The notes beneath the pieces were generated by a model, which saw only the letters and a list, made by a program, of their open reading frames with translations, did no database searches and was not told where the DNA came from. The position numbers were made by a program, and so were the translations under genes. Source: Bdellovibrionales bacterium (GTDB taxonomy: Bacteria > Bdellovibrionota > UBA1018). From it: a stretch of DNA of 64,000 bases. Positions 1,065-10,700 of the stretch are shown piece by piece. How positions within the stretch are numbered: the stretch's first letter is position 1; every line of letters starts with the position of its first letter. The DNA lies in contig JAEUWC010000003.1 of NCBI GenBank assembly GCA_016786465.1, positions 124,001 through 188,000 on the forward strand. The letters are read 5' to 3'.

Positions 1065-1802
1065 TCACTGAAACCCAAATCCGATTTTGGTTCCCAGCGT
1101 GTGCATTCCCGCAAGGTTGTACGAACCTTCTAGCACCAGCTGCAGCCCGATGGTCGGGTGACCTAATTTCAATCCGATAAAGGCTTCACCCGTGTAATTG
1201 AAGTCAGTCGATCGAAACGGAATCCCGCCGGTCATCGACGGGTCGGGTTCCAAAAGTCCATGCGCATTGATGAATGAAATTCCAATATAGGGGTCCGCGT
1301 ATTCCAGCTTTCTTCCAATCACAAGCTGGGGCGACCAGGTGTGCACCTGTGCGTACATAACCGACGCATAGCTGTAGCAGATTCTAAAGGCCCAGTTGAC
1401 GCCTTCTTCGGGATTGTAAAGGGTCCACTGAATATGGCCGCCGACGATGTAAAGTCCCTGATACAAAATCGCGCTGACGCCGATATTTGTTTTTTCCCCA
1501 ATTCCTTTTGCAGCATGAAGTTTCAGCGTCGGCAAAACACCGATTTCTGGCGCTGATGATCCGGCGTCTTCCAGTGCGGGCCCAAGGCCTGTGGAATACT
1601 TCGCAAGATTGGCCGTAATTCCAAGTTCTAAACCGGGTTTGGTTCCAAGCGCGGTTGCTCCGTCAAAGGGCCGATGTTGCAAACCCCCGCCGACGGTCAT
1701 CATCAGTTCTTTGCTGACGGGACCCGTAAGGTTGCTGAATGTCGGGAGCTGTCCGTAAGCCGAAGAAAATCCGACTATGGAAAGAACCAGCCCAAGAATC
1801 AC
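1065..1802 (-). CDS. Predicted outer-membrane beta-barrel protein, unknown function
   Basis: A 245-residue exported protein. A GTG start gives a hydrophobic N-terminus ending in an SAYG-like cleavage region at about residue 17. The rest alternates short polar and aromatic strands with glycine turns (for example GIGEKTNIGVSAILYQGL) and ends in the aromatic residue of a GFGFQ terminus, as in small outer-membrane barrels. It lies 5 nt downstream of secG on the same strand, so it is probably co-transcribed with it. I do not recognise the family. The n-region lacks a clear positive charge, so the exact start is uncertain. Confidence 0.6.
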   Translation of the reverse strand: MILGLVLSIVGFSSAYGQLPTFSNLTGPVSKELMMTVGGGLQHRPFDGATALGTKPGLELGITANLAKYSTGLGPALEDAGSSAPEIGVLPTLKLHAAKGIGEKTNIGVSAILYQGLYIVGGHIQWTLYNPEEGVNWAFRICYSYASVMYAQVHTWSPQLVIGRKLEYADPYIGISFINAHGLLEPDPSMTGGIPFRSTDFNYTGEAFIGLKLGHPTIGLQLVLEGSYNLAGMHTLGTKIGFGFQ

Positions 1803-1807
1803 TTGGG

Positions 1808-2194
1808 TTACTGGGCGGGCTTTTGTGCCGCAGCGTCAGCTGGCTTGGCGTCGGTTTTCGCTGCATCAGCTGGCTTGCCAGCGTCCGTTGGTTGAGCAGC
1901 CGTGTCCGCAGGTGCAGCCGGCGCCGCAGCTTGTGGAACGGCCACGCCGTCCATCACGCTTTTGCGGCTTTGAGTTCCGGTCAACACCGTTAAGGTCAAA
2001 GAAGTGGTCATGAAGATCGCTGCTGCAATCGAAGTGAAGCGGGTAAAGAAATTGGCCCCGCCCGAGCTTCCGAAAACCGTCTGCGAAGATCCGCCCAGGC
2101 TAGCGCTGATGTCGGCGCCTTTTCCCGATTGAATCAAGACAACAAGAACAAGGATCACGCAGGTCACGATGTGCAAGACAGTCAGAATGGTCAT
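1808..2194 (-). CDS. secG: Preprotein translocase subunit SecG with Ala/Lys/Pro-rich tail
   Basis: Inner-membrane accessory subunit of the SecYEG translocon. From ATG 2194 the product is 128 residues: a first membrane helix (MTILTVLHIVTCVILVLVVL), the SecG signature loop with IQSGKGADISASLGG and FGSSGGANFFTR, then a second helix. Beyond residue 80 comes a low-complexity tail rich in Ala, Pro, Lys and Asp with a repeated PADAA/KPADAA unit. SecG tails vary, but this one is long. Longer in-frame starts exist but add a non-conserved segment. A promoter-like pair sits immediately upstream (2205-2233). The next gene begins 5 nt downstream. Confidence 0.9.
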   Translation of the reverse strand: MTILTVLHIVTCVILVLVVLIQSGKGADISASLGGSSQTVFGSSGGANFFTRFTSIAAAIFMTTSLTLTVLTGTQSRKSVMDGVAVPQAAAPAAPADTAAQPTDAGKPADAAKTDAKPADAAAQKPAQ

Positions 2195-2204
2195 AGTGAC
2201 TTTG

Positions 2205-2233
2205 GTTCTAGCGAAGGTTCCCCGAGCGCTCAA
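2205..2233 (-). promoter_or_regulatory. Predicted sigma70-type promoter of secG
   Basis: On the minus strand TTGAGC (2228-2233), a 17-nt spacer and TAGAAC (2205-2210) lie 10 nt before the secG ATG. This predicts a 5' leader of only about 3-4 nt. No Shine-Dalgarno precedes the ATG. Match to consensus is 4/6 at each hexamer. Confidence 0.4.
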
Positions 2234-2323
2234 GTCAATTGTAGGGCGGATTTGATTGTGGATGCTGTGCGTTATGTATCTATGGGTTGCAAATCCCAAG
2301 AAGCCGGCGACACTCATTTCGCC

Positions 2324-3715
2324 ATGAATGGCGTACTAGGCTGGGTTTCAGCAGGGACGGGGGGACTTTTGATGGCTTCAAGCCTAGCGGCCGCAGCTAC
2401 GCCTGACTTTCGCCCATTAGAAAAGTACGCATTTGGAAATCGCCTGGGGGTTACCACCGATGCGGTCTTGATTCAGCACCAGGGCAAGATCATCTATGAA
2501 AAGTATGATCGCGGTTACCAGGCCCAAACGCCGCATCTGACTTGGTCGGTGACCAAGACCATCGCGGCAGCGCTGATCGGAATTGCCGAAAAAGAAGGCC
2601 TGCTTCACCGAGACGATCTTTTATCAAAATACATTCCGGGCCTGGGTCCGGAAAAATCTTCGTGGCGACTGAGCCACTTTCTTCAAATGACCAGTGGGAT
2701 CGCTTGGCGAGAAGGGTACGATCTTTCTCCGATTCGTTCCAGCGTCGTGCACATGCTTTACCTTCGCGGAATGAGCGACATGTCGGCTTACACCTTGGGC
2801 CTTCCCACCCAGTTTATGCCCGGTCATCGCTTCATTTATTCCAGCGGCGACACCAACGTCCTGATGGATGTTTTGAAACGCGTCCTTCCGTTGGCAGAAA
2901 AAAATACATTCCCTTGGACCCGCCTGTTTCAGCCGCTTGGAATTCAAAGCGCGGTTTTTGAACAAGACCAAAGCGGAACATTTGTGGGGTCGTCCTACCT
3001 TTATGTTTCGCCCCGCGATCTTTTGAAACTGGGGCAGCTTTATCTTCAAAACGGAAATTGGAACGGCGTACAAGTCATCCCTGCCGAATTCGTTCAGTAT
3101 CAAAAAACGCTTTCGCCTGGATTTCAGAATGCTATCGGTCACGATTCAAAAACGCCCTTTGGTGCGCACCTTTGGCTCAACCAAGATGTTCCTGGCCAAC
3201 AACCCCGACCTTACGCGGATGCACCGGATGATACGATCGCAATGCTAGGGTACGCAGGACAATCCGTTTTCATGATTCCTTCATTGGATCTGGTCATCGT
3301 TCGGGCCGCACAAGACACGTTAAGCCCGATGATGGATAAAAACGAATTCTTGAAGCGAATCATTCAGGCCATTTACCCAGGCTATCAGGCCCCTGCGTCT
3401 GGGGTTCAGAAGTCAAAAGTGAAAAAGCAGGGCGAAAAAGTCCAGCCCAAGAATGAAGGGGATCTTTCAGAACTTCCCCGGATGCTTTTCAGTTTGGCAG
3501 CCAAAGAATACTGTTCCTGCCACTTCATCGAAGGTCAAAGCGCTTCGGTTTGTAAGAAGCGAGCAAAGAAGCTGATTCCGCTTTTTGGTTTGGATGTGGA
3601 TCAGTCGACAAAATCAGTTCGTGTGGGCTGGTATAAAAACGATTTCGACAAAAGTTTCGCCCAGTTCCATTCAGCTGAATTGGGTTGCAGCCTGAAGGGT
3701 CCGTCAATCCCCTGA
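2324..3715 (+). CDS. Exported serine hydrolase, beta-lactamase/6-aminohexanoate-dimer hydrolase type
   Basis: Serine hydrolase of the class C beta-lactamase/esterase superfamily (PF00144-like), probably acting on amide or ester bonds in the periplasm. From ATG 2324 the SxxK motif is S75-V-T-K78 in LTWSVTKT. A YSSGDTN segment about 100 residues later matches the YSS/YxN position seen in 6-aminohexanoate-dimer hydrolases. The N-terminus is hydrophobic with an Ala-rich cleavage region. The last ~75 residues are an extra domain with four Cys (CSC, VC and GC positions), not part of the hydrolase core. ATG 2282 is an alternative start; neither has a good ribosome site. First gene of a same-strand envelope run. 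Confidence 0.75.
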   Translation: MNGVLGWVSAGTGGLLMASSLAAAATPDFRPLEKYAFGNRLGVTTDAVLIQHQGKIIYEKYDRGYQAQTPHLTWSVTKTIAAALIGIAEKEGLLHRDDLLSKYIPGLGPEKSSWRLSHFLQMTSGIAWREGYDLSPIRSSVVHMLYLRGMSDMSAYTLGLPTQFMPGHRFIYSSGDTNVLMDVLKRVLPLAEKNTFPWTRLFQPLGIQSAVFEQDQSGTFVGSSYLYVSPRDLLKLGQLYLQNGNWNGVQVIPAEFVQYQKTLSPGFQNAIGHDSKTPFGAHLWLNQDVPGQQPRPYADAPDDTIAMLGYAGQSVFMIPSLDLVIVRAAQDTLSPMMDKNEFLKRIIQAIYPGYQAPASGVQKSKVKKQGEKVQPKNEGDLSELPRMLFSLAAKEYCSCHFIEGQSASVCKKRAKKLIPLFGLDVDQSTKSVRVGWYKNDFDKSFAQFHSAELGCSLKGPSIP

Positions 3716-3764
3716 CGACAGCTTCTATTGCGCGCGAACCCGGCTTCGCTCATCATTGTACGTG

Positions 3765-5930
3765 ATGAAAATTCGATTCGGAAAACTGTTGGGACAATGG
3801 GCATTCACTTTTGTTTTTATTTTCGCATCATCGGGGCCAAGCGCTCTGGGAGCGCGAAAGCCCGGAAGTGCTCCGGATTCTCCGTACTTTGATTTGGAAC
3901 GAATGGAATCTGATTTCAAATCACCAGAAATTCCGGTGGCGGCTAAAGCTGTGCGTAAGGCCATTGCGGCTGATGCCTGTAAGAAAGTCGATTCTCGCGG
4001 CGATTCTCGTCACGAAATTTGCAAGTTTCAAGGCGAACGTGGCGAATCGAAAATGAACATCCTGTCACTGACGGGCCCGTTCACCCAAGCTGCGTATGAC
4101 CAGGGATATTTGCTGGCCAAGGAAATCGAAACTGGCGCGCTTTCTGAAGCGATCAACAATATTCGAAAACTGGACACCAGCCTTCCGAAGGGTCTGGTGG
4201 GTTTAGCGCACAAGATTTTCGCCTGCTACGAACACAAGATCAAAAAGTCAGTTGATCCTGAATTCCGTAAAGCCGTTTCGGAACTTTATCGCGGATACAA
4301 AGACCGACTGAAAGACAAAGCGCTTTACACCGAAGCCGATTTTGAAACAGCGACTTATAGCATTGATGTCGGTAACGTTTTTTATTCGCTGATGTACCAG
4401 GCAGAAGCAAAACCCGCGGCGGCGGTCGGGCATCTGCTTCGTGACTGCGGGTTGAACGTCACGGCGCAAGCCCTAAGCCAACTTTGGCACAAAGTCTTTA
4501 AGACCCGGAAGGTGGACCCAAAGTTAGCGTGCACGGGCGCCGTCGTGGCACCCAAGATCAGCAGCGATGGATTTTTGTATCACGCGCGAAACCTAGAACA
4601 GTCTTCGATGATTGAAACCTGGAATAACAATCCTGTGACCTACATCGCTTCCGAACCGGGCTACCACAAGTACGTTGCTTTCGGCACGGCTGGGTTGATA
4701 TTTCCAGGCGGGATCAGCGGTTACAACGAAAAGGGAATTGCGGTTTCAACCCACCAGATGGATCCAGCCAAGTACGGGATCAATTACAAAAAAGATTCCG
4801 CGGCTATGGGACCCTACGTCCAGCAAATGATTTTGCGGAAAGCGGGAACGCTTGAAGAAGCGCTGGCGATTGCAAAGTCTGTGGAAACCTATTCGGTTTG
4901 GACCTTTCTGGTTTCGGATTCGAAGACAGGTCAGGCCATTTCAATTGAAATGTCAAAAGAAGGGGCATTCGTCGGAACCAAAAGCACAGATTACGGTTTG
5001 GCTCAGTCAAACCACTTCGTCGCGCCTGAAAACAAAAAGCAGCTTTTTCACGATTCGTACAATTTCTATCTAGAAACAGTCGGACGCTTTCTTTACACCG
5101 ACAAAGTCCTTCACGCGGGTCTAGAAAAGAAAATGGATTTTGATGCACTTCTTAGCCACATGGCTTCGCGGGTGGATTGGTTTTCAGGGCGTCCGGTCAG
5201 TTTCGGTCGATCCGTCGGCCGGATCATGACCATCATGGCGTCCATCGTTTCTCCCAGTCAGAACAAGGCCTGGGTCACGGTGTCTGACCGCATGCCTTCC
5301 AACATGGGGTATTATTTAGGCTTCAAAGCCGATTTTAATGCGATGTCGCTGACCCCATTTGAAGCGGTACGAATCGGGGATTATGAATCACCCAAGGATC
5401 AAAAATTCGCTTTAGCCTTGGAACGTTACCAAACCGCATATCGCGCGAAGCTTGCCGGCGACGCGGTCGCGGCCAGAAAAGGATTGGAAGAAGCGATGAA
5501 GCTTTCGCTGGATGGCGGACGCGACGACGCAAACTTTCGTTTGATGCTGGCGCACTTTGCAGTTCTGGAAAAACGCTACACCGACGCGTACCCCATGTTG
5601 AAGGCTTTGGAATCGCGACTGTCGGAATTTCACCCCTTGCAGCGGGCATTGATTCGACAGCTTCGAATCTATTCTTTGGATCAGTTGCCGCAAGACCACG
5701 TCGACCGTGGTGCGGACATGATTGTTCGTGATCTTTGGTACCGTGAAGCCAAGTCCGTTTACGACTATGCTCTGCGCGAAAAGGATGATTCAAAACTTTT
5801 CCCAACTTTTGCGCACGGACTTAAGGCCGCTTTGGCCAATGTCGAACACTTGAAAAAGGGTCTAGAACGCATCTACGAAAAGCATAAGAAGGCGAAAGTC
5901 CCGTCCATCGACATGAAGACAGGCGAATAA
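3765..5930 (+). CDS. Exported C45-family Ntn hydrolase/acyltransferase (autoproteolytic)
   Basis: A 721-residue protein with a signal peptide (MKIRFGKLLG then a hydrophobic core). The middle matches the C45 / acyl-CoA:6-aminopenicillanate acyltransferase family: Cys256 in LACTGAVV is the predicted N-terminal nucleophile exposed by self-cleavage, followed by HARNLEQSS, GGISGYNEKGIAVSTHQ and the EAL helix region. About 255 residues precede the nucleophile, much of it helical, and roughly 150 helical residues follow residue 550 and look TPR-like. ATG 3765 is preferred to TTG 3756 because it starts a classical signal peptide. It lies 49 nt after the serine hydrolase. Substrate unknown; N-acyl amides or peptidoglycan fragments are possibilities. 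Confidence 0.72.
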   Translation: MKIRFGKLLGQWAFTFVFIFASSGPSALGARKPGSAPDSPYFDLERMESDFKSPEIPVAAKAVRKAIAADACKKVDSRGDSRHEICKFQGERGESKMNILSLTGPFTQAAYDQGYLLAKEIETGALSEAINNIRKLDTSLPKGLVGLAHKIFACYEHKIKKSVDPEFRKAVSELYRGYKDRLKDKALYTEADFETATYSIDVGNVFYSLMYQAEAKPAAAVGHLLRDCGLNVTAQALSQLWHKVFKTRKVDPKLACTGAVVAPKISSDGFLYHARNLEQSSMIETWNNNPVTYIASEPGYHKYVAFGTAGLIFPGGISGYNEKGIAVSTHQMDPAKYGINYKKDSAAMGPYVQQMILRKAGTLEEALAIAKSVETYSVWTFLVSDSKTGQAISIEMSKEGAFVGTKSTDYGLAQSNHFVAPENKKQLFHDSYNFYLETVGRFLYTDKVLHAGLEKKMDFDALLSHMASRVDWFSGRPVSFGRSVGRIMTIMASIVSPSQNKAWVTVSDRMPSNMGYYLGFKADFNAMSLTPFEAVRIGDYESPKDQKFALALERYQTAYRAKLAGDAVAARKGLEEAMKLSLDGGRDDANFRLMLAHFAVLEKRYTDAYPMLKALESRLSEFHPLQRALIRQLRIYSLDQLPQDHVDRGADMIVRDLWYREAKSVYDYALREKDDSKLFPTFAHGLKAALANVEHLKKGLERIYEKHKKAKVPSIDMKTGE

Positions 5931-5950
5931 AGGTGCCTGCTACTTTATAA

Positions 5951-5965
5951 GTCCGAAGATCGGAC
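5951..5965 (+). other. Short perfect hairpin in a leader
   Basis: GTCCGA (5951-5956), loop AGA, TCGGAC (5960-5965): a perfect 6-bp stem between two same-strand genes, 21 nt before the next ATG. No T-tract follows, so it is not a typical intrinsic terminator. It may influence processing or translation of the downstream gene. Confidence 0.3.
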
Positions 5966-5986
5966 GCTCACCTCATCGCTCACATC

Positions 5987-7222
5987 ATGATTCGCCACCT
6001 GGGACTTTTCTTCTTTTGGGCCATTTCAGTGCCAGCGCTAGCGGCGGACGGTTCACGGCCGCCAGCCGAATCCATCACTTACACGCTGAACTGGACCGTC
6101 GAAGCGGACGGCCAGCAAAAGCGGATTTATGAATTCGGCTACGTGGGCCCAAAAACACTTGAGCGCCTAAAAAGGTTTGCCGGCAATCAGACCCAAGATC
6201 GATTGGCCTTTGTGAAAAACCTGATTTCGGGTCTTCATCCCAGCGAAAAGATGGTTTCTTCGCAGGAAACATCAACCGGGAAGTTTCAGTTTGTCTACAC
6301 CCGGGCCGCCCAAGGAAAGGCTGACCCGATTTCACCCTTGGTGATTTTTCTTCCAGTTCATCAAGACCCGGTGGCCAATGCCTGGACGCCGGATGGAAAT
6401 TCAAAAGTCCTTCGGTCTTCACATGCCCTAAAAATAGTTCACGACTTTCATTTGAAGCTTCCTTGGAAAATCAATCGTCAGGATCGCAAGTGGTCTTTTT
6501 CGCCCGGACATCGAACCCACGGTGATTTCAGCTTTGATGCACAGTCGGACGGAACAGTGGACTATCATTCGGAACTAAGCGTTCCTGAATTCAAGTCGGT
6601 GGGAAATGACGAGGCTTTAGAAATGGTGTCCGCCCACCATCAATGGAGCGCTGGACGTCTGAGCGAAGTTCAGATTGTGGCCAGCGAAAAAGCAGGAGCT
6701 TCACAGCGAGCTAGCTTAGCTAGGCCCGGTCGATACTTTGAGTTTGGAATGGGTTATGGATCGCTTGCGGACCGTGACGACTTCATTTCTGGTTTTGGCG
6801 TGATGCTGGCGTATTCGTATGAAATTCCCGTGTCCGACCGCTTTTACATTAAGCCCGTTTCTTTGGAATACCGTCGGATCGGTTTGTCTTCTAGCCGTGA
6901 GCGCCCTCAAAGTTCAGACGAAGCTGGCGCGCGCTTTCATTTGGGATACGTTCGCGACCGTGCGATGCCGTCGCCCGCCACGGGGTTTCTGCGTTCGAAT
7001 CTGGACCTGGCTTTTGCGTATTCTTGGTTGGATGTTCAGGATGGAAACCGAATTCAGCGTTCGGGTTGGTTTCCGGGGTTTGCGATTCGGGGCCGGTGGG
7101 GAATAGCGACGCCGGGTGAACTGATCATGCGAAGCGCAGGAATTTATATCGAGTACACGACCTATTTCGGGGCCAATCCGTTACAAAGTCAGTTTCAAGT
7201 GGGGTTTGATTGGGAAATGTAA
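5987..7222 (+). CDS. Exported protein with barrel-like C-terminal half, unknown family
   Basis: A 411-residue protein. Residues 1-20 are a signal peptide (MIRHLGLFFFWAISVPALAA). Residues 25-230 are a globular region I do not recognise. From about residue 245 amphipathic strands of barrel type appear (RYFEFGMGYGS, FGVMLAYSYEI, FYIKPVSLEYRR, IYIEYTTYFG), ending FQVGFDWEM with aromatics near the C-terminus. An outer-membrane barrel fused to a periplasmic domain is the best reading. The next gene begins inside its last codons (13-nt overlap), indicating translational coupling with the M48 protease lipoprotein, which has a similar barrel-like C-terminus. Confidence 0.6.
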   Translation: MIRHLGLFFFWAISVPALAADGSRPPAESITYTLNWTVEADGQQKRIYEFGYVGPKTLERLKRFAGNQTQDRLAFVKNLISGLHPSEKMVSSQETSTGKFQFVYTRAAQGKADPISPLVIFLPVHQDPVANAWTPDGNSKVLRSSHALKIVHDFHLKLPWKINRQDRKWSFSPGHRTHGDFSFDAQSDGTVDYHSELSVPEFKSVGNDEALEMVSAHHQWSAGRLSEVQIVASEKAGASQRASLARPGRYFEFGMGYGSLADRDDFISGFGVMLAYSYEIPVSDRFYIKPVSLEYRRIGLSSSRERPQSSDEAGARFHLGYVRDRAMPSPATGFLRSNLDLAFAYSWLDVQDGNRIQRSGWFPGFAIRGRWGIATPGELIMRSAGIYIEYTTYFGANPLQSQFQVGFDWEM

Positions 7223-9213
7223 AAGGCGTGTTTCAAAATGCAGCGATACTTTTTGGGGTGGCCCTGGCTTCCGGATGCACATCCTTGATGACCCAGTCGG
7301 TTCGCCAGTTCGGCGCGGACTACACTTTGGAAAAAGATCCGGCCGTCTTTCTTTCGAGTGCGATGGCCATTCAGATTCGCGCGCAAGCGGATCCTTCAAA
7401 CGAACCGCTTTATACGCAGGCCCTTCTTTATCATCTGAAGCGTCTGACGGCGGCCCTACCCAAGTCCGAATGGCATTACAGGGTATCTGCAGTTCAGCTT
7501 CCGATGGAAAACGCTTTTGCCATTGGTGACGGACAAATTTATTTCACGGAAATGCTGATGGATTCATTGGCGTCGAATGAAGAATTGGTGGGGATTTTGG
7601 CCCATGAAATCGGCCACACCGAACTGAAGCACAGTTACGAAAGACTGGATCCCAATGTGGCGTCGGATCTTTCACTGGGCCTTTTGGCTTTCGTTCGCGA
7701 TCAAAAGCAGGAATTTGAAGCGGATCGGTTTGCGATCGAACTTTTAAGCAAAGCGGGCTACCGCGTGGATGGTCTAGCAGAAATGTTGGATCGTCATGAA
7801 AAGCAAGCCAAGCTTGCTCGGACTCGAAGCGGAGGGCTATTTCTTTCACACCCCGCTTCGGAAGATCGTTCCAAGAAGATCCGCGACCAGATCAATGCAT
7901 TGGGTTCAGATTCGTCCAGAAGGACGACCCCGATTCCGACTCAGTACGATCTAGTTCAAGTGCGGCGCCGACTTTTTAAGGAATCCAAAGAATACGGAAA
8001 AATCCCGACCTATGAAGAAGACGTCGAAAGAAATCCCGACTTGCCGGCGTCAGTTCGTGAAGAACTTCTTCAAGCGCAATCAGCCCTGTACAGTGGTTGG
8101 CAAGTTTCAAAAAAGGTATCTGAATTGAACCAGGTCTTGAAATCGACTTTGACCGAAAAGCACCAGGCAATCGTGCACCTTTGGATTGGGCGCCTGAAAG
8201 CTCAAGTCTTTGATATCGACGGTGCGCGCGCTTCATTTGAAGCTGCGGCGAAATTGGCCCCAGGTCTTCAATCGCCGCGCTTTCGCCTTTTGATTCATCT
8301 GGACAGCGAATCGGAAAAAAAGGCGTTATGGAAGAAGTACAAAAATTCTTGTGGATCAAGCCTAGACTGCTTGTCTTGGTCGGTTCTGGCATCGGGGATG
8401 ATCGGGGTTGATCCCGAAGATCGCGTGCTTGCAGCAGCTGATTTCAGAAAGGCCTTGATTCAGAACCCCGCAAGCGAAAACCTAGCGAATCTTTCACCGG
8501 CTTTTGCTGCCGAAATCGACGGAAGTTTTTATCAAGAAGCGGAAGATCGCCCCGATAGTTACGATTTTCCAAAAGGGTATGAAAAGCCCCGTCAGGTGAC
8601 CGACCTATTGGAACTGAACAAGGAATCGATCCGACGTGAATGGGTTCGCGAAATGAATCCGCGCTACACCCAGCTTGGAATCGGCTTTGGAAATTTCGGT
8701 GTACTTCAAAAAGGCCAAAACAGTTTCTTTCCTTCGGCCATGGGAATGAACTTTGATTACTATGTTCACTGGGGGAATCGCTTTTCGGGGTTTCGCTTAA
8801 ATGGCGGAACAGAAACTTTCGCACCGGGTGGGCCCTTGAAAAGCAGCGAAATTCTTTGCTTAAGCTTTCCTTTGGGCTTGAAGTCAAAGTGGGGAAGTCA
8901 CTGGATTCCATGGACGTCGGGCGAATTGGGTTTCGGAGGATTTTCGGTCGAAAGGCCCGGGCAGGATTCAAAATTCATCGCTCGCGGATTCACGGGTCGT
9001 GCGTCCGTTGGGTTAGACTATCTTTTTCCGCGCTTGGGCCTGGGTTTAAGTGCGCAAGCATTTATGGGGCGAATCGCCCTGAATTCCAGCCCCTTCAATT
9101 CAGGCGCGTTGAACTACTGGGGGTTAAGCCTGGGCATTTCAGCTTTGAACTTCTTGCCCGCCCAGACCCCCGAAGCCGTCTTTAGTCCCTTGCGTTCACC
9201 TGTGTTCTACTAA
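7210..9213 (+). CDS. M48-family metalloprotease lipoprotein with C-terminal barrel-like domain
   Basis: A 667-residue protein starting at TTG 7210, inside the end of the previous gene. A lipobox LASGC puts the lipidated Cys at residue 23. The M48 catalytic core carries AHEIGH (zinc ligands His132 and His136, catalytic Glu133) and the third-ligand region QEFEADRFA (about 168). Residues ~270-430 are helical repeats like the TPR part of BepA-type proteases. From about residue 480 the sequence becomes glycine/aromatic strands (YTQLGIGFGNF, FTGRASVGLDYLF, YWGLSLGISALNF) typical of a membrane barrel. BepA-like proteins normally end after the TPRs. A role in outer-membrane protein quality control or processing is inferred. 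Confidence 0.75.
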   Translation: MGNVKGVFQNAAILFGVALASGCTSLMTQSVRQFGADYTLEKDPAVFLSSAMAIQIRAQADPSNEPLYTQALLYHLKRLTAALPKSEWHYRVSAVQLPMENAFAIGDGQIYFTEMLMDSLASNEELVGILAHEIGHTELKHSYERLDPNVASDLSLGLLAFVRDQKQEFEADRFAIELLSKAGYRVDGLAEMLDRHEKQAKLARTRSGGLFLSHPASEDRSKKIRDQINALGSDSSRRTTPIPTQYDLVQVRRRLFKESKEYGKIPTYEEDVERNPDLPASVREELLQAQSALYSGWQVSKKVSELNQVLKSTLTEKHQAIVHLWIGRLKAQVFDIDGARASFEAAAKLAPGLQSPRFRLLIHLDSESEKKALWKKYKNSCGSSLDCLSWSVLASGMIGVDPEDRVLAAADFRKALIQNPASENLANLSPAFAAEIDGSFYQEAEDRPDSYDFPKGYEKPRQVTDLLELNKESIRREWVREMNPRYTQLGIGFGNFGVLQKGQNSFFPSAMGMNFDYYVHWGNRFSGFRLNGGTETFAPGGPLKSSEILCLSFPLGLKSKWGSHWIPWTSGELGFGGFSVERPGQDSKFIARGFTGRASVGLDYLFPRLGLGLSAQAFMGRIALNSSPFNSGALNYWGLSLGISALNFLPAQTPEAVFSPLRSPVFY

Positions 9214-9218
9214 ATAAT
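9190..9218 (+). promoter_or_regulatory. Predicted promoter giving a leaderless transcript (gene at 9225)
   Basis: TTGCGT (9190-9195), 17 nt, AATAAT (9213-9218), then exactly 6 nt to ATG 9225. The -10 matches 5/6 and the -35 3/6. No Shine-Dalgarno is present, so transcription is predicted to begin at or next to the start codon. Confidence 0.45.
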
Positions 9219-9224
9219 CGAATT

Positions 9225-9884
9225 ATGATAAAAACACTTTTCGTCACGTTGGGGATGGGGATTTTTTCGATTCAAGCCGCAAATGCGTCCGTTTTGATTG
9301 ATATCCAAGGAAGCCCATTGGGTTGGTCCAGTAGCGCGGGCGCAAGTGGTGGTGCTACCGCGTCCGGAGCGATCAATGTATCCAAACATGCCCTTCGGGG
9401 AACACTGGCTTTTCAGATTCCGATCGGGCTTTATCTGGGTGGTTCTTATTCCAGTATTTCAAACGGAAGCACGACCGAGGAATTCGTCAACGGCGTTTCC
9501 GGCGGTGATACCAGCACAGCAAGCTTTGCTGAATACGGCCCGACCTTGGGCTTTGCAAAGAACGGATTCAACCTAGGCTTTACCTATTGCCTGGGCACCA
9601 CATTTACATCAACCGACGTGAATAAGAACAATTCCGGAACTGTGACTTCGGATCAGACCCAAAGGTTTCAGAAGGGTTCCGGGTTTCAGATTTCCTTTAG
9701 CTACACTTTCGCGCTTTTTTCGAAAGTTCGCCTAGGACCCGCACTTCTTTACAGAAGTTCGACCTATGAAGAAATTGCGACCAAGAACAATCTTTCGGGT
9801 GCTGCCGAAGTCGTGACTGCTTTGACCACCAAAGCCAAGTTTGACGGAATCACACCGATGATCAACTTGGTCATCGACCTGTAA
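9225..9884 (+). CDS. Predicted outer-membrane beta-barrel protein
   Basis: A 219-residue secreted protein: signal peptide MIKTLFVTLGMGIFSIQAANA, a Ser/Gly/Ala-rich linker, then strands of OmpW/OmpA-like small-barrel character (GTLAFQIPIGLYLGGSYSS, FAEYGPTLGFAKNGFNLGF, GFQISFSYTFALF, RLGPALLYRSSTY), ending in hydrophobic MINLVIDL. The family is not recognised. It closes the same-strand envelope run but carries its own promoter-like element and no ribosome site, so it may be made from a separate leaderless mRNA. The convergent tpiA stop lies 8 nt downstream. Confidence 0.65.
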   Translation: MIKTLFVTLGMGIFSIQAANASVLIDIQGSPLGWSSSAGASGGATASGAINVSKHALRGTLAFQIPIGLYLGGSYSSISNGSTTEEFVNGVSGGDTSTASFAEYGPTLGFAKNGFNLGFTYCLGTTFTSTDVNKNNSGTVTSDQTQRFQKGSGFQISFSYTFALFSKVRLGPALLYRSSTYEEIATKNNLSGAAEVVTALTTKAKFDGITPMINLVIDL

Positions 9885-9904
9885 GCAACCTTTAGAAAAG
9901 TTGC
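9885..9904. terminator. Weak bidirectional hairpin between convergent genes
   Basis: GCAAC (9885-9889) pairs with GTTGC (9900-9904) across a 10-nt loop between two convergent stop codons. The stem is short and the T-tract poor, so terminator function is only suggested by position. Confidence 0.22.
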
Positions 9905-10689
9905 GAAAAGCTATCGGGCTTCAGGCTTGCGCCACCCACCAGTGCGCCGTCGATTTCAGGCTGCGCCATCAGTTCGGCGACGTTTTTTGGGGTGACGCTT
10001 CCGCCATAAAGGATCGGCGTTTTAGCGGCAGCGTCCGGCCCGACCTGATCTTTCAAAAGCTTGCGAATGAATGCGTGCGCATCGTTGGCCTGGCTTGGCG
10101 TTGCGGTCAAGCCAGTGCCAATGGCCCACACGGGTTCGTAAGCAATCAAAAGTCGGCCGTTCCAAAACCCCATCAATGGACCCGTGGATCCACCGAAAGT
10201 AACGGGCGCCAGTTGTTCGCGTAGGCAGCTTTCCGTCTGCCCAGCTTCACGCTGCGCGCGCGTTTCGCCCACGCAAAGCATCACTTCAAAGCCCTGTTGA
10301 AGCAAAGACACAGTCCGCTTGAAGGCTGTTTCGCTGGTTTCACCAAAGAACTGGCGACGTTCCGAATGGCCAATCAGCACAGTCTTCACACCGGCTTCTA
10401 AAAGCATCGGCCCCGAAATTTCTCCGGTATAGGCGCCCGACTTTTCCCAGTGCGCGTTTTGCACGCCAATGGCGATGCCGTTCCAAGGTGCGGGTGCTTT
10501 TGCACAAGCATCTTTTGCCGCCGAAAGCGAAAGCGCAGGAACGTACAAAGAAGAAGTCACGCCTGGGGCGAAACTTTTCCCGCTGGGCAGTTGGATCTTT
10601 GAAAGCGATTCAAAAAAGGCGCGGGTTTCCGCAACCCCTTGATTCATTTTCCAGTTACCAGCGATGCGTAATCCCCGAGGCTTGCTCAT
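9892..10689 (-). CDS. tpiA: Triosephosphate isomerase
   Basis: Interconverts dihydroxyacetone phosphate and glyceraldehyde-3-phosphate. The product is 265 residues from ATG 10689 and has the TIM-barrel landmarks: NWKMN with the substrate-binding Lys, the catalytic His in IGHSERR, the catalytic Glu in AYEPVWAIGTG (loop 6), and the phosphate-binding GGSV plus LVGGASL near the end. It starts 11 nt after the pgk stop and is the last gene of the gap-pgk-tpiA operon. The TTG at 10695 is a less likely start. Confidence 0.96.
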   Translation of the reverse strand: MSKPRGLRIAGNWKMNQGVAETRAFFESLSKIQLPSGKSFAPGVTSSLYVPALSLSAAKDACAKAPAPWNGIAIGVQNAHWEKSGAYTGEISGPMLLEAGVKTVLIGHSERRQFFGETSETAFKRTVSLLQQGFEVMLCVGETRAQREAGQTESCLREQLAPVTFGGSTGPLMGFWNGRLLIAYEPVWAIGTGLTATPSQANDAHAFIRKLLKDQVGPDAAAKTPILYGGSVTPKNVAELMAQPEIDGALVGGASLKPDSFSQLF

Positions 10690-10700
10690 GGCCAATCCGC

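What the first reader, a model, noticed from the sequence alone, without database searches (positions are those of the whole stretch)
2324..9884. Same-strand run of envelope hydrolases and barrels
Five consecutive genes encode a beta-lactamase-fold hydrolase, a penicillin-acyltransferase-fold (C45) hydrolase, a barrel fusion, an M48 protease-barrel lipoprotein and a small barrel. Two unrelated amide/ester-hydrolase folds beside membrane barrels suggest one envelope system that processes and passes acylated amides, muropeptides or signals. No described system with this gene set is known to me.
Basis: inference. Interest (0 to 1): 0.6.

Follow-up and report, generated by a model that had tools for sequence, protein, structure and literature searches.

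The report
Young envelope operon, acyl-amide hydrolase
Five envelope genes that sit together in this Bdellovibrionota genome are found together in no relative searched, but one of them belongs to a little-known amide-cutting enzyme family whose sister branch, in Bdellovibrio-like bacteria, nearly always lies beside a gene for an enzyme that makes such amides.

Summary
In detail: five tightly packed plus-strand genes (2324-9884) encode a NylB/EstB-type beta-lactamase-fold hydrolase, a C45 Ntn hydrolase, a secreted barrel-like protein, an M48 lipoprotein with barrel-like C-terminus, and a small barrel. The set is not a conserved system. It interrupts gap-pgk-tpiA-secG, on the opposite strand, at a site of variable content. 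None of 57 relatives has the set: gene 3 has no sequence homolog, gene 4 matches almost everywhere only by its M48 domain, the rest lie dispersed. The hydrolase pair recurs once (G024, reversed), but the two beta-lactamase-fold proteins are not sisters. A gene 3-gene 4-like pair recurs in G010 with weak sequence support. The useful result is the C45 protein: AAT/acid-ceramidase/NAAA-like predicted fold plus TPR-like tail. Outside its own clade, members across the phylum lie within 5 kb of a GH3-type acyl-amide synthetase gene in 25 of 28 genomes, usually with a LysE-type exporter and TetR regulator, pointing to N-acyl amino acids as substrates. Best reading: a young composite operon around a secreted N-acyl-amide hydrolase; joint function of all five genes is unproven.

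The parts
2324..3715 (+). Gene 1: secreted beta-lactamase-fold (NylB/EstB-type) serine hydrolase with a C-terminal KEYCSC Cys-rich domain
   Evidence: PF00144 8.8e-26; nearest solved structures 8rlj, Lsa45 8dc1, 6-aminohexanoate-dimer hydrolase 4gb7; SxxK and YSS motifs present, motif III His replaced by Tyr
3756..5930 (+). Gene 2: secreted C45 Ntn hydrolase with helical N-domain, Cys259 catalytic domain and TPR-like C-terminal domain (probable start ATG 3765)
   Evidence: PF03417, NF040521; 16-row alignment with invariant C259/H276/R278; AF2 pLDDT 86; Foldseek best hit isopenicillin N acyltransferase, then acid ceramidase and NAAA
5987..7222 (+). Gene 3: secreted N-domain plus C-terminal barrel-like region; no homolog by sequence in 57 relatives
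   Evidence: weak similarity to the gene upstream of the G010 M48-barrel protein
7210..9213 (+). Gene 4: lipoprotein (LASGC) with M48 metalloprotease, helical middle and barrel-like C-terminal region; overlaps the end of gene 3 by 13 bases
   Evidence: PF01435 5.3e-20; full-length relative only in G010
9225..9884 (+). Gene 5: small exported barrel; homologs in G002, G020, G025 and G003 at unrelated loci
1808..2317 (-). secG, left border of the insertion (likely start Met at 2194)
   Evidence: PF03840
1065..1802 (-). Conserved secG/tpiA-neighbourhood barrel-like protein (DUF6588 family in homologs), resident of this junction in relatives; not part of the five-gene set
9892..10695 (-). tpiA, right border of the insertion

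Best explanation
The run is a lineage-specific, composite envelope operon inserted, on the opposite strand, between tpiA and secG. Its most interpretable part is the C45 protein: a secreted Ntn amidase that self-cleaves at Cys259 and hydrolyses N-acyl amino acids or related acyl amides in the periplasm or outside the cell. The neighbouring NylB/EstB-type hydrolase probably acts on a related amide or ester. The M48 lipoprotein and the barrel-like proteins are envelope proteins of separate origin that have been co-transcribed with it. Shown by computation: gene content, domains, conservation of the catalytic residues, the predicted fold, absence of the set in relatives, the interrupted tpiA-secG junction, and the GH3 linkage of the sister C45 clade. 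Inferred: secretion, operon transcription, autoproteolysis, the N-acyl amino acid substrate, and any cooperation among the genes.
For: Gaps and overlaps typical of an operon. In 18 of 29 relatives examined, secG follows tpiA on the same strand within 1.2 kb; in others the interval holds varying genes such as a glycosyltransferase-like and a glycogen-debranching-like gene. No relative has the set. C45: the AF2 model matches isopenicillin N acyltransferase (TM 0.74 by target length), acid ceramidase (0.59-0.63) and NAAA, with Cys259, His276 and Arg278 invariant in 16 members. Members outside the window's clade lie within 5 kb of a PF03321 GH3 gene in 25 of 28 genomes, and all 28 genomes have GH3 against 100 of the other 341 (p = 1.6e-14), often with overlapping stop/start codons, a LysE-type exporter and a TetR gene. 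A bacterial GH3-like enzyme, OlsH, makes N-acyl ornithine with ATP (PMC12493201).
Against: The window's own C45 belongs to the clade without GH3 linkage (0 of 7), so the substrate inference crosses a deep split. The window genome has two GH3 genes, but elsewhere. GH3 presence in clade I genomes is no higher than background (3 of 7; p = 0.42). No same-genus genome was available, so conservation at short range is untested. No promoter stands out. The base composition of the block does not differ from its surroundings, so recent import is not shown.
Confidence: 0.5

Rival explanations
1. The five genes form one functional envelope system, that happens to be confined to this genus: the two hydrolases process an acylated amide and the M48/barrel proteins pass it through the outer membrane or build the machinery for it.
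For: Same strand, tight spacing, all five apparently exported; recurrence of the C45/beta-lactamase-fold adjacency in G024; recurrence of a gene 3-gene 4-like pair in G010.
Against: The set is never found together elsewhere; the two C45-linked beta-lactamase-fold proteins are not sisters; the G010 pair lies beside a trypsin-like protease and a tail-specific protease, with no C45 or beta-lactamase-fold gene within the 19 kb read.
Confidence: 0.2
2. The run is a chance pile-up of independently acquired envelope genes at a permissive junction (tpiA-secG), with no shared function beyond co-transcription.
For: The junction has variable content across the family; each gene has its own distribution.
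Against: Two adjacencies (C45/beta-lactamase-fold and gene 3/gene 4) recur once each in other genera. By a rough estimate of mine (2 beta-lactamase-fold copies, 2 sides, about 3,900 genes) the first has a chance of about 1 in 1,000 per genome tested.
Confidence: 0.25
3. Gene 2 and gene 1 are antibiotic-modifying enzymes (penicillin acylase and beta-lactamase) forming a resistance operon.
For: Folds are those of isopenicillin N acyltransferase and class C beta-lactamase.
Against: Gene 1 is nearest to NylB/EstB-type hydrolases, not true beta-lactamases, and its motif III lacks the usual Lys or His; the C45 sister clade goes with amide synthetases, not resistance genes.
Confidence: 0.05

Closest known systems
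C45 family (NCBIfam NF040521, Pfam PF03417; fungal isopenicillin N acyltransferase, 2x1c)
   Same: Catalytic Cys with downstream R-N; fold including the helical N-terminal part (TM 0.74 by target length); passes both curated cut-offs
   Different: About 14% identity; has an extra TPR-like C-terminal domain and a conserved acidic C-terminal tail, and a predicted signal peptide
Acid ceramidase / NAAA (5u81, 5u84, 6dxw)
   Same: Ntn Cys amidases of the same fold (TM 0.59-0.63 by target length) acting on acyl amides
   Different: 11-12% identity; no TPR-like tail; animal lysosomal enzymes
OlsH (GH3-like N-acyl ornithine synthase, PMC12493201) and its operon partner OlsI
   Same: GH3 synthetases are the recurrent neighbours of the sister C45 clade
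   Different: OlsH pairs with an alpha/beta-hydrolase O-acyltransferase, not with C45 or LysE; the window locus has no GH3
NylB / 6-aminohexanoate-dimer hydrolase and related class C-like serine hydrolases
   Same: SxxK, YSS and GxxGQ motifs, among the best PDB hits
   Different: Extra C-terminal KEYCSC domain; His of motif III replaced by Tyr in the window protein
LoiP / BepA M48 proteases
   Same: M48 domain, best NCBIfam hits; lipobox as in LoiP
   Different: Far below both curated cut-offs (69.9 against 365; 42.4 against 570 bits); barrel-like C-terminus

Membership tests
C45 autoproteolytic acyltransferase/hydrolase | Sequence score above curated cut-off | tested here: met
   NF040521 87.5 bits (cut-off 85), PF03417 35.7 bits (cut-off 23.2)
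C45 autoproteolytic acyltransferase/hydrolase | Nucleophile Cys and catalytic Arg conserved | tested here: met
   C259, H276, R278 invariant in 16 members; N279 nearly invariant
C45 autoproteolytic acyltransferase/hydrolase | Ntn alpha-beta-beta-alpha fold | tested here: met
   AF2 pLDDT 86; Foldseek 1.4e-10 to 2x1c
C45 autoproteolytic acyltransferase/hydrolase | Autocatalytic cleavage before the Cys | not testable with these tools
   needs purified protein
GH3-LysE-C45-TetR neighbourhood (clade II of this C45 family) | GH3 gene within 5 kb | tested here: not met
   Window locus has none; the two GH3 genes of G000 are on contigs C23 and C2
GH3-LysE-C45-TetR neighbourhood (clade II of this C45 family) | C45 protein inside the GH3-linked clade | tested here: not met
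   Tree puts the window protein in clade I with 100/100 support
NylB/EstB-type class C-like serine hydrolase | SxxK and Y-S/A-x motifs | tested here: met
   SVTK at 75, YSSGD at 172
NylB/EstB-type class C-like serine hydrolase | Motif III H/K-x-G | tested here: not met
   GYAGQ instead of GHxGQ
M48 LoiP | Exceeds curated cut-off | tested here: not met
   69.9 against 365 bits
M48 BepA | Exceeds curated cut-off | tested here: not met
   42.4 against 570 bits

The most novel reading that the evidence does not exclude
Bdellovibrionota carry a previously undescribed pathway that makes, exports and cleaves N-acyl amino acids (GH3 synthetase, LysE-type exporter, C45 amidase with TPR-like tail, TetR regulator), and the window shows a related branch in which the amidase stands outside that cluster and has been paired, twice independently, with a NylB-type hydrolase for periplasmic use.
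Probability: 0.3. Interest if true: 0.7.

Novelty: new variant of a known kind. Interest (0 to 1): 0.45.

Why it matters
The five-gene set itself appears to be a local novelty of one lineage. Tracing its C45 gene, however, exposes a conserved gene neighbourhood in Bdellovibrio-like bacteria that couples an acyl-amide synthetase to an exporter and an acyl-amide hydrolase. I found no paper in the held library that describes it. If real, it predicts an unknown acylated amino acid released and recycled by these bacteria, many of which are predators, and it can be tested by lipidomics and gene deletion.

Tried and rejected
Conserved five-gene system: rejected, no second occurrence. Vertical inheritance of the C45/beta-lactamase-fold pair: rejected by the beta-lactamase-fold tree. 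Recent horizontal import judged by base composition: no signal. Homology of gene 3 to the G010 upstream gene: a first local test found nothing (its global test was invalid because end gaps were free), and a corrected global test gave Z 3.2 with 1 of 300 shuffles and 2 of 142 real proteins as high, so suggestive only. AlphaFold of gene 3 alone: unusable, pLDDT 34. Sequence profile of the C45 family against PDB: only weak acid ceramidase hits at E 0.07-0.35, so the structural comparison carries that point. Promoter and terminator scan: no promoter excess; more terminator-like sites than expected (23 against 15) but none that marks a clear transcript end. Barrel 5 profile against PDB: no hit. Literature: no paper found that links Bdellovibrio with GH3, C45 or ornithine lipids in the relevant sense.

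Full report
Observation. The five genes are present at the stated coordinates, on the + strand, with short gaps and one 13-base overlap. Family searches confirm a PF00144 beta-lactamase-fold hydrolase, a C45 Ntn hydrolase and an M48 lipoprotein; the two remaining proteins have no significant family match.

Place in the genome. The window is G000:C21:124001-188000 of a 3.63 Mb assembly with no same-genus relative in the collection. The five genes lie between tpiA and secG, on the opposite strand. In 18 of 29 relatives examined, secG follows tpiA on the same strand within 1.2 kb (27 to 1179 bases), and in two more it is near but inverted. In several others a glycosyltransferase-like gene, a glycogen-debranching-like gene or a DUF6588 barrel-like protein occupies the interval. 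The five genes are therefore a lineage-specific insertion into an old gene order at a junction of variable content. Base composition does not set the block apart.

Conservation of the set. Gene 3 has no homolog in 57 relatives. Gene 4 matches only by its M48 domain except in G010. Gene 5 has distant homologs in four genomes at unrelated places. Gene 1 homologs are scattered, some beside NfeD and SPFH genes. Orthologs of gene 2 occur in four of the 57. Of 20 named loci with C45 relatives (four of them the same genomes), 18 were laid out gene by gene (two were not called by my ORF script), and only the G024 record has a beta-lactamase-fold gene beside C45. No genome has three or more of the five together.

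Recurring pairs. In G024, C45 and a beta-lactamase-fold gene are adjacent on one strand in reversed order. A tree places that protein in a well-supported clade of five that excludes the window protein, so the adjacency arose twice or one case is chance. In G010 an M48 lipoprotein with a similar C-terminal half is preceded, with overlapping stop and start, by a secreted protein of gene 3's size and layout. Similarity outside M48 is weak (Z 3.2 for gene 3, 2.1 for the C-terminal half of gene 4).

The C45 family. A profile search of 369 phylum genomes found 35 genomes with members that match most of the profile and 11 with partial matches. A tree of 31 proteins separates clade I, with the window protein, from a clade that holds all 15 GH3-neighbouring members. 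By coordinates, GH3 (PF03321) lies within 5 kb of C45 in 25 of the 28 members outside clade I and in 0 of 7 clade I members (Fisher p = 1.8e-5). All 28 of those genomes have GH3, against 100 of the other 341 (p = 1.6e-14); related genomes are not independent, so these p-values overstate the case. Of the 28, 17 were placed in the GH3 clade by the tree; one (G276) is a long branch of uncertain place, and ten were assigned by score and genus. In the 15 GH3 neighbourhoods read, a LysE-type exporter lies beside GH3 or C45 in 13 (Pfam match over cut-off in 5 of the 6 tested) and is fused to C45 by eye in G003, where Pfam gives no match; TetR-like genes lie nearby in 13. In several, GH3, LysE and C45 overlap by four bases.

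Structure and function. The AF2 model of gene 2 (16 sequences, pLDDT 86) matches precursor isopenicillin N acyltransferase best, then acid ceramidase, NAAA and bile salt hydrolases, with a helical TPR-like tail beyond the catalytic part. Since GH3 enzymes form amides from acyl acids and amino acids, and the bacterial GH3-like enzyme OlsH makes N-acyl ornithine (PMC12493201), an Ntn amidase fixed beside GH3 most simply cleaves the same kind of bond. Carrying this to the window protein is inference across a deep split.

Verdict. The run is real and operon-like but not a conserved system. Its parts are known folds in a local combination. The lead worth following is the phylum-wide GH3-LysE-C45-TetR neighbourhood, for which I found no description in the held papers.

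Noticed in passing
L236 (G197:C1:2178000-2195000) 5074-9809; also L229, L230, L232, L233, L235, L237-L242, L224, L227, L064: Conserved TetR / GH3 / LysE-type exporter / C45 neighbourhood across Bdellovibrionota, often with overlapping reading frames; a candidate N-acyl amino acid synthesis, export and cleavage cluster.
   Followed up: yes
window 1065-1802 and homologs in L143, L146, L149, L152, L153, L156, L157: A DUF6588-type barrel-like protein is a recurrent neighbour of secG or tpiA in the family, on either strand.
   Followed up: partly
L076 7620-11128; also L071 and L074: Homologs of gene 1 lie beside NfeD-like and SPFH (Band 7) genes; in L076 and L074 the C-terminal Cys domain is a separate small gene next to the hydrolase.
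   Followed up: partly
L144, L147, L148, L155, L156 between tpiA and secG or close to them: A glycosyltransferase-like gene and a glycogen-debranching-like gene occupy the tpiA-secG interval or its neighbourhood in several relatives.
   Followed up: partly
L134 (G000:C23) and L142 (G000:C2): The window's genome has two GH3 genes away from the C45 gene, one followed by a fatty acid desaturase-like gene.
   Followed up: no
L090, L092-L098, L100: The same C45 family with TPR-like tail occurs in Rhodospirillales/Pelagibius-type alphaproteobacteria; the one read in full (L095) shows no obvious signal peptide.
   Followed up: no
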